Part shown: in pieces, positions 7,426 to 52,030 of the stretch
Numbering within the stretch: the stretch's first letter is position 1
Layout of the letters: each line of letters starts with the position of its first letter
Assembly (NCBI GenBank): GCA_016648135.1
Contig: JADDOH010002108.1
Location: forward strand, 186,001 to 250,000
Source of the DNA: Agrypnia vestita
Taxonomy: Eukaryota; Arthropoda; Insecta; Trichoptera; Phryganeidae
Direction of reading: 5' to 3'
Length of the DNA: 64,000 bases
Made by a program: the position numbers and the translations under genes
The notes under the pieces: model-generated
Database searches by the model: none
What the model was told of the DNA's origin: nothing
What the model saw: only the letters and a program-made list of their open reading frames with translations

Positions 7426-7489
7426 TCACTAAAAGAATAAACATCATCATCACCAACATCATCGTCAGATTTGGTGCATAGTGTTTGGA

Positions 7490-11372: not shown

Positions 11373-13412
11373 TTATAGTTGGCCGAGTTTTAACATTTTT
11401 GTCACATCTGTTTTGAATTTGTCAGTGGTCAGTTGTTTGGTCTGTTGTGGCAGGTCATTGTATAGTTTTAATCGGCGGTTGCAAATTAGTCGGGATTGTC
11501 CTGTTTTTGTTTTGGCGTGTGTTATGTGATAGTTTTGAGCCATTCTAGTGTTGTGTTGATGTTTTTCATGTATTTTGTGTAATTTTATGTCTTCGTCTTG
11601 TATTTCGCCAATTGCTAGTCTGTGAATGATTTTAAGTGTTTCGATTTTTGTCATGCTTTCGATGTTTAATTGTTGTGTTATATGATATACAGTTTCAGTT
11701 GGTGTCCGGTATTTCAGATCATATACCATTTTTAGTATTTTGTTTTGCTGTCGTTGGAGTCTGTTTAGGTTAGTTTTGTTTCCGGTTCCCCAGAAGGGTA
11801 TCAAATATCTTATTCTACTCTTGAGTCTGCAGAATTTTTATGGTGCAGAATTTTTATGGAACAGCCTGGCAGAATTTTTATGGTCTTTGGTGTGATTTCG
11901 TGTATTTTGTGGAATAGGCTGGTTAGTTTAGTCAGTGAGTCAATTCTTTGTCTATTTGAAAGGTCCTTTTGAGATGTCTGTCTATGTTGAGTCCTAAGTA
12001 TTTAGTATTTTCTAGTTCAGTGAGTGTTTCGTTATGTATTTTTATGTCCATTTTATGCGTTTTCCGTTTGGCCTCAAAGTTAATGTAGTTACATTTTTGG
12101 GCATTTAAGGTTAGAATATTTCTTTTTGTCCATTCAGTTAATATATCTATGTCTTTGTTGATTTGTTTTGTGGTTTCTATGTCATTATTGTTTTCGTAAA
12201 ATATTCCGAGGTCGTCTGCATAGAGTATTATTTTGCCTCTAATATTTAGCTGCTCTAGGTCATTTATATATATTATATAGAGTAATGGTCCTAGGATTGA
12301 TCCCTGTGGAACACCACAGCTGACATTCATATATGTACTTGTGGTTTCGTGTAGCGTGGTGAATTGCTTTCTGTCTTTTAAGTAGCTGTCGAAAATGTTT
12401 AGGACGTTGCCAGTGATTCCAATTTTTGATAATTTGTTGACTAGGGTAGTCAGATGTACCGTGTCAAAAGCTTTTTAAAAATCGAAAACGAGTCTGGAGG
12501 AGCTTTTCCCTTCGTCAATTTTTGTCTGTAAGTAATTTAATAAGTTTATCATGGCTGTAGTGGTTCCCTTTTTTTCTTAAAAGCCGTGCTGTGTTTTCGT
12601 CAGTATGTTGAGTTTATTCAAGTGTTCGAGTAGTCTTTTATGTATTAATTTTTCAAATATTTTACTAAATACAGTGAGATTTGCAATGGGTCTGTAGTTG
12701 CTGGCTTCGTCTTTTTTGCCACTCTTGTATATTGGGGTTATTCTGGCTATTTTCAGCTCATTGGGTAAAATTCCGAGTTTCATGTGTTTATTTATGAGTC
12801 TTTTGATGGTGGGTATTACTGTGTCTTGTATAATTTTGAGTGTTGATGTTTTGATTCTATCATATCCGGCGCATGCATTTTTTTGAGATTTTTTATTATT
12901 AGCTTGATTTCTCTGTCTGTGGTTTGTCTGAAGTACATCGAGGCGTTTGTTTTTGGGTCTTGTGGTGGTGTTGCTTTTTTTGGCTTATTGATTTGCATTG
13001 CTAGGTTTTCTCCAACTGTAGAGAAGTAAGTGTTTATGGTCTTCACTATTTCTTGCGGATCTTCTGTGATAGTTCCATCTCCTTTCTTTATTCTTTTTAT
13101 GTTGGTTTTTTTAATGTCTGAGTGGGATACAATGCTATTGACGATTTTCCAGAGTTTTTTGCTGTTACCCTCAGCTTCGTTTAGTTGTGCACTATAATGA
13201 TCTTTTTTTGCCTTTTTTATAGATGTTTTTACGTCTTTTTGGCAGTAGTTATAATATTTAATAAGTTCGGTGCTATGCGTCTCGTTTTTCATTGTTTTGT
13301 ATGCTTTGTCTCTTATTTTAATCTTTTGGTAAATGTCTTTTGTCAGCCGTCCTTCTTTAATACTGTTTGTATATTTTCTTTTTGTTGTCTCGGTTGATTT
13401 GTTTAGCTCTTC
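11373..13412 (-). pseudogene. Jockey/CR1-type reverse transcriptase, 5'-truncated
   Basis: The best-preserved reverse transcriptase in the window. In order on the minus strand: a linker with KEGRLTKDIYQKIKIRDKAY (from about 13410), AQLNEAEGNSKKLWKIVN, SNYRPIANLTVFSKIFEKL, the motif-A region FDF*KAFDTVH, GVPQGSILGPLLYIIYINDL, the catalytic YADD, and a C-terminal tail (HQHNTRMAQNYHI, RLKLYNDLP). Breaks are a stop in place of a residue after QHGF, a stop inside the motif-A region, and frame changes near 12800 and 11930-11800. The endonuclease domain is absent: homology stops at about 13412. It cannot encode an active protein. Confidence 0.9.
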
Positions 13413-25271: not shown

Positions 25272-26554
25272 TTAGGTCCTTACATATGAAATTGGCGTTT
25301 AGTATGGGAGGAACATAAAGCCGATTTTTTTTATTATAATATATTTATTTAATCAAAGTATGTAACATTGCTATCTATGCACTTTTGCCATCTCATAGGT
25401 AGTTCATCGATCCCTTTACTAAAAAAACCATTCGGACGGGAATCAATAAAATCTTTGAAGGCGGTTTGGACTGCCCCATCGGAGTTGAATTTTTTCCTTT
25501 GCAAGAAGTTATCCAAATTTCGAAAAAAATGGTAATCTGTTGGGGCAAGGTCCGGAGAGTACGGTGGATGTCTTAAACATTCCAATTGAAGCTCCTCTAA
25601 TTTGGTAGCCGTCTGTTGTGCAGTGTGTGGTCTAGCGTTATCATGAAGCAGCAGTGGCCTAGAGCGATTAACCAGCCTCGGTTGTTTAGCAGCTAGCTTT
25701 TCCATCATTGTTTGCAGTTGCTGACAATAGACATCTGCCGTAATCGTCTGGCCAGATTTAAGAAAGCTGTAGTGAACGACACCAGCACTAGTCCACCAAA
25801 CGCTCACAAGTAACTTTTTTGGAGTCAATTTTCGCTTGGGCATGGTTTGGCTGGTTCGGCAGGGTTCAGCCATTGCGATGAGCGCTTCCGATTATCGTAC
25901 AGGATTCACTTTTCATCACAGGTAATGATTCGATTTAAAATCCCTTCATTATTGTGCTGGTTGAGTAATACAACGCAGCAGTCAACGCGCGTTTGTTGAT
26001 TTGCTTCACTCAATTCGTGAGGTACCCACCTTTCAAGCTTTTTCACCTTACCATTTGCTTCAAGTGGATTAAAACAGTTTTATCACTAACACCGCAGCCT
26101 GCAGCTAACTCGGATGTGGTTTGCGATGGATCCGCTTCCACAATAGCCTTCAATTCTTCATTATCAACTTTGGTCTCCGGCCGTCCACGGGGCTTGTTCT
26201 GCAGGTCGAAATTTCCAGAACGAAAACGTTGGAACCAAAAACGCACTGTGTTTTTTTTTGCGGCACCGTCGCCATACACATCATTAATCCTTCGAGCCGT
26301 TTCTGCAGCACTGGTGCCACGGTGGAACTCGTACTCGTAAATAACGCGATATTTCAAGTTTTTCATTTTGTAAACTGAGTGACGCAAAGAAAAAAACAAT
26401 TGAGGAAAAAACAAATGAATTATAATTTTCAAAACACAAATACATGAGTAAATAGCTGTATAAATTCGGATTTGGAATTCCTAACCAAAGAGAAGATATT
26501 AGAGATCAAATTTGCCAGTACGGCAAAACGCCAATTTCATATGTAAGGACCTAA
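25272..26554 (-). mobile_element. Full-length mariner element (1,283 bp)
   Basis: Terminal inverted repeats of about 28 bp (TTAGGTCCTTACATATGAAA... at 25272, its complement ending 26554) flanked by TA duplications (25270-25271, 26555-26556). Length is the mariner standard. Encloses a minus-strand transposase with a stop and frameshifts. An isolated 21-bp A/T inverted repeat lies just outside at about 25218-25244. Confidence 0.95.
25349..26366 (-). pseudogene. mariner transposase (DD34D type), inactivated
   Basis: Begins MKNLKYRVIYEYEFHRGTSA at 26366 and reads through the paired helix-turn-helix region (TVRFWFQRFRSGNFDL, KPRGRP, LKAIVEADPSQTTSELA). It shifts frame near 26050 into KVKKLERWVPHELSEANQ, then ITCDEK*ILYDNRKR, where the usual Trp after the first catalytic Asp is a stop. 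It shifts again near 25840 and ends with LLLHDNARPHTAQ and YSPDLAPTDYHFFRNLDNFL, which hold the second and third catalytic Asp. The family encodes a cut-and-paste transposase of about 345 residues acting on TA sites. All catalytic Asp residues remain, so inactivation rests on one stop and two frameshifts. Confidence 0.93.
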
Positions 26555-31290: not shown

Positions 31291-32119
31291 TGGTATTTTT
31301 TACCTAATTGAATGAGTTTCTAGCTTTTCAATTGTTAAAATTAATGTTATAATCCGAATCAATTAAAAAAAGCGCGCACTCATTTTTTTGATTAGCTTCT
31401 TTTAATAGGTAATATCTTGTTTATTCCTACACGGCAGTATTGAAATATAGTGGCCTTAATTAGATGAGACAGGTCTCGTAATGTATCTTCACAAGTCTTA
31501 TTACTGGGTCGCCCTTACAGCTGACCCCAGGGTCTTACCATCCATCCACCATTAAGGAACTCCTCCGGGCCTTGTTTCGCTCAAAATTGTGCAAAGGATA
31601 ATATCTTTTTCTTAAAATATTTATTTATAATTATTTTTCCTAATTTCTTCTGAATAAAATTATTTCTTCTGTATGAATGTTAATAGTACTGCCTCCTACA
31701 TTAAAAAGAATTAATTTTATATCGTTGCTTCACGACTTAGGATCATGATCATCATTTCTGCATTCTGTTCTACTCCTCTGAGATGCCAATTACGATCATG
31801 ATCTGGTCAATCCATGGGGTTAGATTAATTCCTCTTCCTTTCGAGCATAAAACATATCTGCATGCTATCATCTCTTCTTGCGAGTTACCTGAAGTATTGG
31901 AAGACATGTCTTTTTTTTTGTTTACTGTTTTTAATATAATTGAATCTCATTGGTAAGACCGAGATCGGCGTTATATGATGATTTTTGAGTAGGTTTTTAT
32001 ATATTTTGTCTTTTTCGCCATTGAATTTCTCACAATAGAGTATACAAATCAAAATAATTAAATAATATTATTTTTATTTTAAATATTTAAAGCATTAATT
32101 TTGTTGTTAGACATTATAA
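31291..32119. other. Intergenic DNA, locally less AT-rich
   Basis: 31455-31600 and 31735-31880 are richer in G+C than their surroundings but show no frame or motif I recognise. Confidence 0.4.
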
Positions 32120-32161
32120 CAGAGTGTTAGTTAAATAAGTATAAACCACTACCAGATTTTA

Positions 32162-32203
32162 GGTCTACCGGTTTCGAGACATACTCGTCTCTTCGTCAAG
32201 ACG
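32162..32203 (-). ncRNA. Hammerhead ribozyme-like motif (type I form)
   Basis: Minus strand: TTGACGA, a five-pair stem II GAGAC/GTCTC, GAAA, palindromic CCGG and TA, then GACC. Core C3 is U here; the partner at 32348 keeps C3 but has A9 changed, so together they point to an intact ancestor. Confidence 0.6.
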
Positions 32204-32347
32204 GACACTACACTACCTAAGTTCACAACACTATACGAGTGCATGCTAATCTTTGACAAGATCAACACGCATGTGATAAAAATTGGTGAATGGTTAATAG
32301 TACAATGGTTGTGGTACATAGAATAGTGAACATAGTAGTGTTGTGTT

Positions 32348-32389
32348 GGTCCTGACGGAAAGGTGGGTACGTCTCGAAACCGGTAGACC
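32348..32389 (+). ncRNA. Hammerhead ribozyme-like motif (type I form)
   Basis: GGTC-CTGACGG ... GAAA-CCGG-TA-GACC: stem I GGTC/GACC pairs perfectly, CCGG is self-complementary and could form stem III between two copies, and TA is an allowed cleavage site. Stem II (AAGGTGGGTACGTCTC) has decayed and A9 is G. Confidence 0.6.
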
Positions 32390-32433
32390 TAAAGTCTGGT
32401 AGTGGTTTATAATGATTTAACTAACACTGTATA

Positions 32434-33103
32434 ATAATTAAATAACTTATCATTACATTATTCCATTTACTTCATATTCTATTCAAAATATTATAACGGT
32501 ATTGACCCAAGCTTGTCGCGCCCCTGGTCTTAGACTATGACATGTCAAAAAAAAGCATTCTGAGATAATTGGATACAAAGTTTCAATTCTCAGAAAGAAA
32601 TCAAAGAATGTGTAGTAAACCATTATATTTTTCGTATTGTACAAAATAATTTGTATTTTTACACCTCACTTCAATGAAATATTATTTATCCAGTGTGACG
32701 CGTAGAAAAACATTTATAATACATAAAGTTCATGACATAACAATAGATCGCATACCACACTTTTGTCATAATCAAGTTTTTTTGTGTCTTTAAAATGTGT
32801 TGATATGTAATCTGCCAAAAGCTTGTATCTAAAAAACAATTATTTCTGTCTCTTATTCCATTAAAACAATTCTTCATGTTCTATTTATTATAAAGAATCT
32901 AGGTATTATGCGGTTTTTTGCCTCCTCTATAAAATCTGTATTAGGTGAGTGGCTTTTGAGGTATTATTTAATCATAAGCTATATTAATGTCCAATGGTTC
33001 ATTATTTATGATCATGTATTCACTTCTCGTCTGACTTATATTTATAGGGAAGGTTTAACCACTTTAGAGTTTCGTTACCTTGCAGTTCTTAGTAAGAGCA
33101 ACA
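32434..33103. other. AT-rich intergenic DNA
   Basis: Nothing identified; a CGCGCCCCTGG at 32518 recalls hAT-type ends but has no partner. Confidence 0.4.
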
Positions 33104-51330: not shown

Positions 51331-51446
51331 GATCACGTTATTTACTTATATGACAGATTGTTTTGCTTTGTTCGTTTAATATAAGTAATATCATATTTTT
51401 ATGAGTTACCGTAATTATTTATCTATATGATTTTATTATTGAGAGT

Positions 51447-52030
51447 GATGCAACGAATACTACTTTCATGAATACGAATATCAGGCCTACTATTCGGTGA
51501 ATACGAATGCGAATATTTCCACCAAGGTGGGGGAACTTGAACATACTTGTAAATATAATAACCTTGATGCAACGAATACTACCTTCATGAATACGAATAT
51601 CAGGCCTACTATTCGGTGAATACGAATGCGAATATTTCCACCAAGGTGGGGGAACTTGAACATACTTGTAAATATAATAACCTTGATGCAACGAATACTA
51701 CCTTCATGAATACGAATATCAGGCCTACTATTCGGTGAATACGAATGCGAATATTTCCACCAAGGTGGGGGAACTTGAACATACTTGTAAATATAATAAC
51801 CTTGATGCAACGAATACTACCTTCATGAATACGAATATCAGGCCTACTATTCGGTGAATACGAATGCGAATATTTCCACCAAGGTGGGGGAACTTGAACA
51901 TACTTGTAAATATAATAACCTTGATGCAACGAATACTACCTTCATGAATACGAATATCAGGCCTACTACTCGGTGAATACGAATGCGAATATTTCCACCA
52001 AGGTGGGGGAGAACGCAAGCATACTTGTAA
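51447..52030 (+). repeat. 119-bp minisatellite, about five units
   Basis: Units start GATGCAACGAATACTAC at 51447, 51566, 51685, 51804 and 51923. They are nearly identical; the first and last carry the few differences (the last has GGGGGAGAACGCAAGC). Inner motifs GAATACGAAT recur in each unit. The 96-106 codon minus-strand frames here are one frame repeated with a 119-nt shift (not a multiple of 3), not genes. Confidence 0.97.

What the first reader, a model, noticed from the sequence alone, without database searches (positions are those of the whole stretch)
32121..32433. Outward-facing twin hammerhead motifs in an 80-bp inverted repeat
Two copies of a hammerhead-like motif lie in opposite arms of one element, with complementary decay: one keeps C3, the other keeps A9 and stem II. 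The common ancestor therefore probably had an intact core. Stem III is a self-complementary CCGG, which suits dimeric cleavage as described for short-stem-III animal hammerheads.
Basis: partly seen in the sequence, partly recalled or inferred. Interest (0 to 1): 0.8.

Follow-up and report, generated by a model that had tools for sequence, protein, structure and literature searches.

The report
Penelope retroelement scar with dead ribozymes
The spot is an old, broken insertion of a Penelope-type jumping gene whose end repeat, carrying a self-cutting hammerhead RNA motif, was pasted in twice, head to head; the motif's core is intact in many sister copies, but it belongs to an already described kind and both copies here are damaged.

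Summary
Window 32066-32432 is one 5'-truncated insertion of a Penelope-like element (PLE) between 13-bp target site duplications. A sense pseudo-LTR with its 3' tail (minus strand, 32075-32234) is joined head to head to an inverted pseudo-LTR (plus strand, 32238-32438). In 52 aligned arms from 28 loci of the same genome (two of them this insertion and its near-identical duplicate) the majority core is intact; 27 of 52 arms keep all core letters. The motif also lies just behind RT/GIY-YIG frames of relatives: 35 perfect-core hits in 30 of 50 PLE loci, 32 with self-complementary stem III, none in 30 shuffles, with stems rebuilt by compensatory changes between families. The inverted repeat is no element of its own: junctions differ between copies, as expected for PLE insertion. 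The two motifs lie on opposite strands, so they cannot form the dimer on one RNA. PLE hammerheads and inverted pseudo-LTRs are both published. New member of a known kind.

The parts
32053..32065 (+). target site duplication, left copy (aataattaaataa, 13 bp)
   Evidence: read; TSD comparison (there 15 nt with one mismatch)
32066..32432 (.). whole insertion: 5'-truncated PLE, pseudo-LTR sequence only
   Evidence: between the TSDs; shared extent
32075..32112 (-). 3' tail, present on the sense pseudo-LTR only
   Evidence: tail found in 25 of 28 loci; in 21 of 22 aligned inverted arms the match stops at unit 190-201, before the tail
32075..32234 (-). sense 3' pseudo-LTR arm, unit positions 81-239
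   Evidence: converted to window coordinates
32162..32203 (-). hammerhead motif in the sense arm: C3 to U (32199), A9 and stem II kept, cut site would be between 32166 and 32165
   Evidence: CM 77.3 bits; this arm is in the training set
32235..32237 (.). head-to-head junction, 3 nt between the arms
32238..32438 (+). inverted pseudo-LTR arm, unit positions 1-201 (last 6 nt overlap the TSD by similarity)
   Evidence: converted
32348..32389 (+). hammerhead motif in the inverted arm: C3 and stem I kept, A9 to G (32358), stem II lost, cut site would be between 32385 and 32386
   Evidence: 76.4 bits; in the training set
32433..32445 (+). target site duplication, right copy
   Evidence: read

Best explanation
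This is a dead, 5'-truncated copy of a Penelope-like retroelement. Insertion laid down the 3' pseudo-LTR with its tail and, head to head, a second inverted pseudo-LTR copy; the target was duplicated over 13 bp. The pseudo-LTR of this family carries, just behind the stop codon of the RT/GIY-YIG frame, a type I hammerhead with a very short, self-complementary stem III (ACCGGU) and an extra nucleotide after A9. In the living element the motif most likely cuts as a dimer between two directly repeated pseudo-LTRs on one multimeric PLE transcript (inferred; reported for PLE hammerheads by reviews). In this inverted copy the motif most likely does nothing: both arms have lost core residues and the two motifs lie on opposite strands.
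For: Own genome (G000, 1.32 Gb): 89 matches from 40 scored of 3381 first-look candidates. 52 arms from 28 loci give a majority core CTGACGA/GAAA/UA; 27 of 52 arms keep all core letters; of 24 two-armed loci 8 have both arms so, 8 one, 8 none. TSDs: 14 of 21 two-armed copies score 9 or more against 18 of 420 mismatched flank pairs. In 22 aligned two-armed copies inner junctions vary, the inverted arm ends at unit 190-201 in 21 and at 225 in one, and the sense arm generally goes on to about 240. L023 carries a GIY-YIG domain upstream of the arm (23.5 bits, cut-off 22.6). L042 (EN 81% identical to L023) has a 420-aa RT-EN frame with the hammerhead core 123 nt behind the stop. A diverged copy, L079 (EN 64%), has a 733-aa frame, RVT_1 41.1 bits, core 59-60 nt behind the stop. 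Perfect-core hits: 35 in 30 of 50 PLE loci, 32 with palindromic stem III; none in 30 shuffles of the same 150 kb. In 14 distinct sequences 95.8% of pair cells are paired, 35 cells changed on both sides; 0 of 500 shuffles reach either. Published PLE anatomy (inverted pLTR, optional 31-bp tail, 8-10-bp TSD, mostly head-to-head) is the same (PMC3846280, passages).
Against: Within the family there is no covariation (1 cell changed on both sides, shuffles average 2.4); copies look like neutral decay from one source. The cross-family rows were picked by a descriptor that demands 3 pairs in stem I and 4 in stem II, so part of the 95.8% is by construction; two other measures do not stand out (pairs with change on both sides 8 against 6.6, reached by 38 of 500; pair types 16 against 17.1). 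No hammerhead family of Rfam matches. GIY-YIG in L079 (20.5 bits) and RVT_1 in L042 (25.4 bits) fall below Pfam cut-offs, and L042 shows no GIY-YIG match at E 0.001. The dimer energy is not unusual (156 of 500 shuffles as low), and the lone motif prefers another fold (-16.7 against -14.2 kcal/mol). 17 of 50 PLE loci show no hit even with one mismatch, and the 50 are not all independent (L032 is L023's place; L047 and L048 are 97.5% alike). No cleavage or transcript data.
Confidence: 0.95

Rival explanations
1. A MITE-like DNA transposon whose terminal inverted repeats carry a hammerhead.
For: Long, near-matching inverted repeat with similar tips on both sides.
Against: Inner junctions differ between copies, one end alone has a tail, one-armed copies exist; the 14 clear TSDs are 10-15 bp with varied sequence; an arm adjoins a GIY-YIG/RT frame.
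Confidence: 0.02
2. A chance resemblance to a hammerhead inside an inverted repeat.
For: A looser descriptor averages 0.25 hits per shuffled window; a plain core pattern is not above chance; no Rfam match.
Against: Intact majority core in sister copies; 35 perfect-core hits around PLE endonuclease hits against none in 30 shuffles; rebuilt stems across families.
Confidence: 0.02
3. A metazoan retrozyme (small circular-RNA retroelement with hammerheads).
For: Short, non-coding, type I hammerhead; retrozyme RNAs of about 170-400 nt are known in animals (PMC7229834, passages).
Against: Published metazoan retrozymes are direct tandem repeats; the arms here are single or head to head. Outer ends of the inverted arms lie 42-77 nt beyond the cut site (22 copies), so the copied RNA spanned it uncut. 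Family members carry RT/EN.
Confidence: 0.04
4. The hairpin itself is a functional double-stranded RNA source (siRNA or piRNA precursor) and the hammerhead is baggage.
For: Folding energy -160.4 kcal/mol, z -18.3; sub-threshold miRNA-model matches to sister hairpins.
Against: Any head-to-head insertion would fold so; no sign of constraint on the inverted form was seen; the matches are below Rfam's cut-offs.
Confidence: 0.05

Closest known systems
Penelope-like elements with head-to-head inverted pseudo-LTRs (Adineta vaga Pen2a and others; PMC3846280, passages read)
   Same: Inverted pLTR pair, tail on one of them, short TSD, 5' truncation, RT plus GIY-YIG frame in the family.
   Different: Here only pLTR sequence remains; TSD 13 bp against the 8-10 bp seen in those passages; 'hammerhead' does not occur in that paper (0).
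Hammerheads of Penelope-like elements (Cervera and De la Pena 2014; Lunse et al. 2017; neither held; seen only through passages of the reviews PMC6155905 and PMC7761336)
   Same: Minimal type I motif in pseudo-LTRs, helix III nearly absent, thought to cleave as dimers.
   Different: An extra nucleotide after A9 in 34 of the 35 perfect-core hits; whether those papers show it I could not check.
PAc, the Anolis Poseidon PLE (PMC11167929, passages)
   Same: Hammerhead at the pLTR/ORF boundary of tandem PLE copies; its authors found cleavage not necessary for insertion in vitro.
   Different: There the motif overlaps the start of the frame; here it was seen behind the stop codon (5' ends of full copies were not examined).
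Chrysanthemum chlorotic mottle viroid plus-strand hammerhead (PMC3705267, passages)
   Same: Extra A between A9 and G10.1, with a moderate loss of trans-cleavage rate.
   Different: Plant viroid, no retroelement; there C or G at that position was reported as detrimental, while here A, U and C occur.
Repeat-type hammerheads with palindromic stem III (Aedes and others; PMC3088659, passages and a supplementary legend)
   Same: Stem III and loop III palindromic, dimer proposed.
   Different: Not placed in PLEs in the passages seen.

Membership tests
Hammerhead ribozyme, type I, short stem III | Core CUGANGA, GAAA, NUH cut site | tested here: met
   Met by the family majority and 27 of 52 arms; not met by either arm of the window copy.
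Hammerhead ribozyme, type I, short stem III | Stems I and II kept by compensatory change | tested here: met
   Across families: on rows partly selected for pairing. Within the family: no covariation.
Hammerhead ribozyme, type I, short stem III | Self-complementary stem III allowing a dimer | tested here: met
   32 of 35 perfect-core hits palindromic; consensus dimer MFE is the dimeric fold.
Hammerhead ribozyme, type I, short stem III | Self-cleavage at the predicted site | not testable with these tools
   Needs in vitro transcription.
Hammerhead ribozyme (Rfam models) | Match to a curated Rfam hammerhead model | tested here: not met
   No hammerhead match in the window or in the 20 and 9 loci given; it also misses intact copies, so the models seem blind to this short-stem-III form.
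Penelope-like element | RT and GIY-YIG endonuclease in one frame | tested here: met
   For relatives: L023 GIY-YIG above cut-off, L079 RVT_1 above and GIY-YIG below cut-off, L042 RVT_1 below cut-off. The window copy has no coding part.
Penelope-like element | Pseudo-LTR, tail, inverted head-to-head copies, 5' truncation | tested here: met
   and the window copy itself.
Penelope-like element | Target site duplication | tested here: met
   13 bp in the window; 14 of 21 copies against 18 of 420 controls.
Terminal-inverted-repeat DNA transposon (MITE) | Fixed termini and internal structure shared by copies | tested here: not met
   Variable junctions and one-armed copies.
Metazoan retrozyme | Direct tandem non-coding units bounded by the cut site | tested here: not met
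   Arms head to head or single; inverted arms end 42-77 nt past the cut site.

The most novel reading that the evidence does not exclude
The PLE families of this genome share a hammerhead sub-type with an extra nucleotide after A9 and a palindromic stem III, so that cutting can happen only when two motifs sit as direct repeats on one RNA. Head-to-head insertion would then be a built-in off state: it puts the motifs on opposite strands and hides them in a hairpin. The ribozyme would thus act as a sensor of tandem arrangement.
Probability: 0.15. Interest if true: 0.5.

Novelty: new member of a known kind. Interest (0 to 1): 0.33.

Why it matters
It turns a suspected odd twin ribozyme into an explained object and shows how to tell such cases apart: collect copies, find the frame next to the motif, look for TSDs and junctions. 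The genome offers a natural series of PLE hammerheads with rebuilt stems, some decayed and some intact, in direct and inverted order. That suits a test of the open question of what the PLE hammerhead is for. The inverted arms do not end at the cut site, which agrees with the published in vitro result that cleavage is not needed for insertion.

Tried and rejected
Rejected: a hAT- or Tc1-like MITE (my first idea from the CAGTGTTAG-like tips), because junctions vary and a PLE frame adjoins the arms. Rejected: chance, by sister copies. Rejected: retrozyme, see rivals. Rejected: miRNA-model matches as evidence for a miRNA; long hairpins give such sub-threshold scores. Within-family covariation was uninformative. 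Substitution rates against the majority were lowest in the core (25 of 445 cells, against 171 of 1890 and 235 of 1963 in the 3' and 5' flanks; the single extra-A column was lower still), but I made no test of this and do not use it. Dimer energy was uninformative; only the agreement of the MFE structure with the dimeric hammerhead is used. The own-family CM R1 finds the motif in diverged loci only weakly (E 0.003-0.016 at most of the places that the descriptor also found; 18 matches at E up to 1 in 20 loci). A scan of viral contigs for a 20-base piece found nothing. A protein search with a LINE RT from the window did not name the host; from the LINE and mariner remains I guess an arthropod. 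No PDB relative of the L079 frame at E 0.001. Paper searches were seen as listings only.

Rows dropped before counts: L026 (same place as L008) throughout; L002 (same insertion as L001, 99.6% over 2251 bp including flank) from the TSD statistics and the substitution table, but kept in the 52 arms and the 22 junction rows; L009 and L027 are duplicates of one insertion (97.2% over 2586 bp) and both were kept; L014, L024 and L029 had no tail hit and are absent; L019, L021 and L023 have no left arm. Six arms (L002 two, L011 one, L016 two, L020 one) were left out of A1 (46 of 52 rows). Of the 35 perfect-core hits 18 went into A3: near-identical ones, the two with a 4-nt stem III (misaligned in A2) and the L079 hit at 7427-7467 were among those left out.

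Full report
What was claimed. Two hammerhead-like motifs face outward in an inverted repeat at 32121-32433, each decayed differently, so that the ancestor was probably intact and cleaved as a dimer.

The observation. The repeat is there, and the damage is as described: on the minus strand C3 is U with A9 and stem II kept; on the plus strand C3 is kept, A9 is G and stem II is lost (sequence, rows). Both motifs keep GAAA, the palindrome ACCGGU and the UA cut site, and both have one extra nucleotide after position 9. Taken alone the site is only suggestive: a strict descriptor written after seeing it finds only the left arm in the window, and any hit in 4 of 900 shuffled windows; a looser one averages 0.25 per shuffle (60 shuffles); a plain core pattern was not above chance. 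Rfam gives no hammerhead here, but none in sister or relative loci with intact motifs either.

Sister copies. The window is part of a 1.32-Gb assembly, and the element gives 89 matches from 40 scored of 3381 first-look candidates. I aligned 52 arms from 28 loci. The majority reads GGUC CUGACGA A GAGACG GGUA CGUCUC GAAA CCGG UA GACC: an intact core. All core letters stand in 27 of 52 arms; of 24 two-armed loci 8 have two such arms, 8 one and 8 none. The window copy belongs to the last group. L002 is the same insertion as L001 (perhaps an unmerged second assembly of the locus), and L009/L027 are also a duplicated pair. The search returned the copies nearest to the window copy, so they are not a random sample.

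What the element is. 25 of 28 loci show the tail, by which they were oriented. The sense arm runs on into this tail of about 40 nt and then a duplicated target: 14 of 21 two-armed copies have a flank match scoring 9 or more, against 18 of 420 mismatched flank pairs. In the window the duplicated target is 13 bp, 32053-32065 and 32433-32445 (read). In 22 aligned two-armed copies the inverted arm ends at unit position 190-201 in 21 and at 225 in L003, while the inner junction differs between independent copies, with gaps or overlaps of a few to some tens of nt. Some copies have one arm only (L019, L021, L023, L029). Upstream of the single arm in L023 lies a frame with a GIY-YIG domain (23.5 bits against a cut-off of 22.6); L029 shares the end of that stretch. 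A wider search lists 150 matches, scored out of 23202 first-look candidates. L042, whose endonuclease is 81% identical to that of L023, has a 420-aa RT-EN frame followed by the same hammerhead, core 123 nt behind the stop (RVT_1 25.4 bits, below the cut-off). L079, with a 64% identical endonuclease, has a 733-aa frame with RVT_1 (41.1 bits, above cut-off) and GIY-YIG (20.5 bits, below), a second frame head to head, and a hammerhead 59-60 nt behind each stop. RT plus GIY-YIG with pseudo-LTRs, tail, inverted head-to-head copies and short target duplications is the published anatomy of Penelope-like elements (PMC3846280, passages).

Is the motif a hammerhead by descent? In 50 loci around PLE endonuclease hits (150,187 bases, not all independent) there are 35 perfect-core hits in 30 loci, and none in 30 shuffles of the same loci; 32 of 35 have a palindromic stem III, which the descriptor did not ask for beyond its outermost pair. 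Allowing one mismatch, 33 of 50 loci have a hit. Some hits, such as those with a 4-nt stem III in L035 and L052, were not tied to a PLE frame. On 18 chosen rows (14 distinct) 95.8% of pair cells are paired against 78.1% in shuffles, and 35 cells are changed on both sides against 13.3; none of 500 shuffles reaches either; two further measures do not stand out (8 pairs with double changes against 6.6; 16 further pair types against 17.1). The descriptor forces 3 pairs of stem I and 4 of stem II, so the figures lean towards pairing; the fourth pair of stem I, the fifth of stem II and the two inner pairs of stem III were not forced and are paired in 13, 11, 13 and 13 of 14. Within the family alone there is no covariation, as expected for copies of one source decaying neutrally.

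How it most likely works. Shown: the anatomy, the intact majority core, and the conserved core with rebuilt stems between families. Predicted: two consensus motifs fold as exactly the dimeric hammerhead, although the energy is not special and the single motif prefers another fold. Inferred: in a PLE transcript with direct tandem pseudo-LTRs two motifs pair through stem III and cut; L074 shows two direct motifs 294 bp apart. This matches what reviews say of PLE hammerheads (PMC7761336 and PMC6155905, passages). In the inverted copy each transcript has one motif and the complement of the other and is predicted to fold to a hairpin of -160.4 kcal/mol, so no cis dimer can form; both arms are also broken. 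The inverted arms span the cut site and end 42-77 nt beyond it (22 copies), so the copied RNA was uncut there. That fits the report that cleavage is not needed for insertion of the Anolis PLE in vitro (PMC11167929, passages). The head-to-head form has been ascribed to self-priming at palindromes (PMC3846280); I did not test that, though the unit starts with a GCATGC palindrome (unit printed).

Known or new. PLE hammerheads, palindromic stem III with proposed dimers (PMC3088659, passages) and inverted pseudo-LTRs are all in print. The extra nucleotide after A9 has a precedent in a viroid (PMC3705267, passages); here it appears in 34 of 35 perfect-core hits, as A, U or C. Whether that is in the two main PLE-hammerhead papers I could not check, as neither is held. 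In the listings of searches, which cover open-licence papers only, I saw no paper on hammerheads in inverted pseudo-LTR pairs; I did not read all those papers. Verdict: a new member of a known kind, well explained, of moderate interest.

Noticed in passing
L032-L081 (PLE loci of the same genome): Extra nucleotide between A9 and stem II (A, U or C) in 34 of 35 perfect-core hammerheads, and palindromic stem III in 32 of 35 (ACCGGU, ACAUGU, ACGU and others).
   Followed up: partly
G000, whole genome: Large PLE load: 23202 first-look candidates for one endonuclease piece, 150 scored; four places at 64% identity keep open frames of 666-733 aa.
   Followed up: partly
L079 3126-5327 (-) and 5262-6938 (+): Two nearly identical PLE frames head to head, each with a hammerhead behind the stop codon.
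   Followed up: partly
window 51446-52010: Tandem array of a 119-bp unit, 4.7 copies, 99% match.
   Followed up: no
window 25349-26480 (-): Mariner-type transposase split into two frames (Transposase_1 and HTH_48).
   Followed up: no
window 11373-13412 (-): Broken LINE-type reverse transcriptase (RVT_1 in one of several frames).
   Followed up: no
L031 4792-6279: Satellite-like array of an 83-bp unit upstream of a PLE fragment.
   Followed up: no
L035 2646-2685 (+), L052 707-746 (+): A further hammerhead type with a 7-bp stem II and 4-nt stem III (ACGU); its element was not identified.
   Followed up: no
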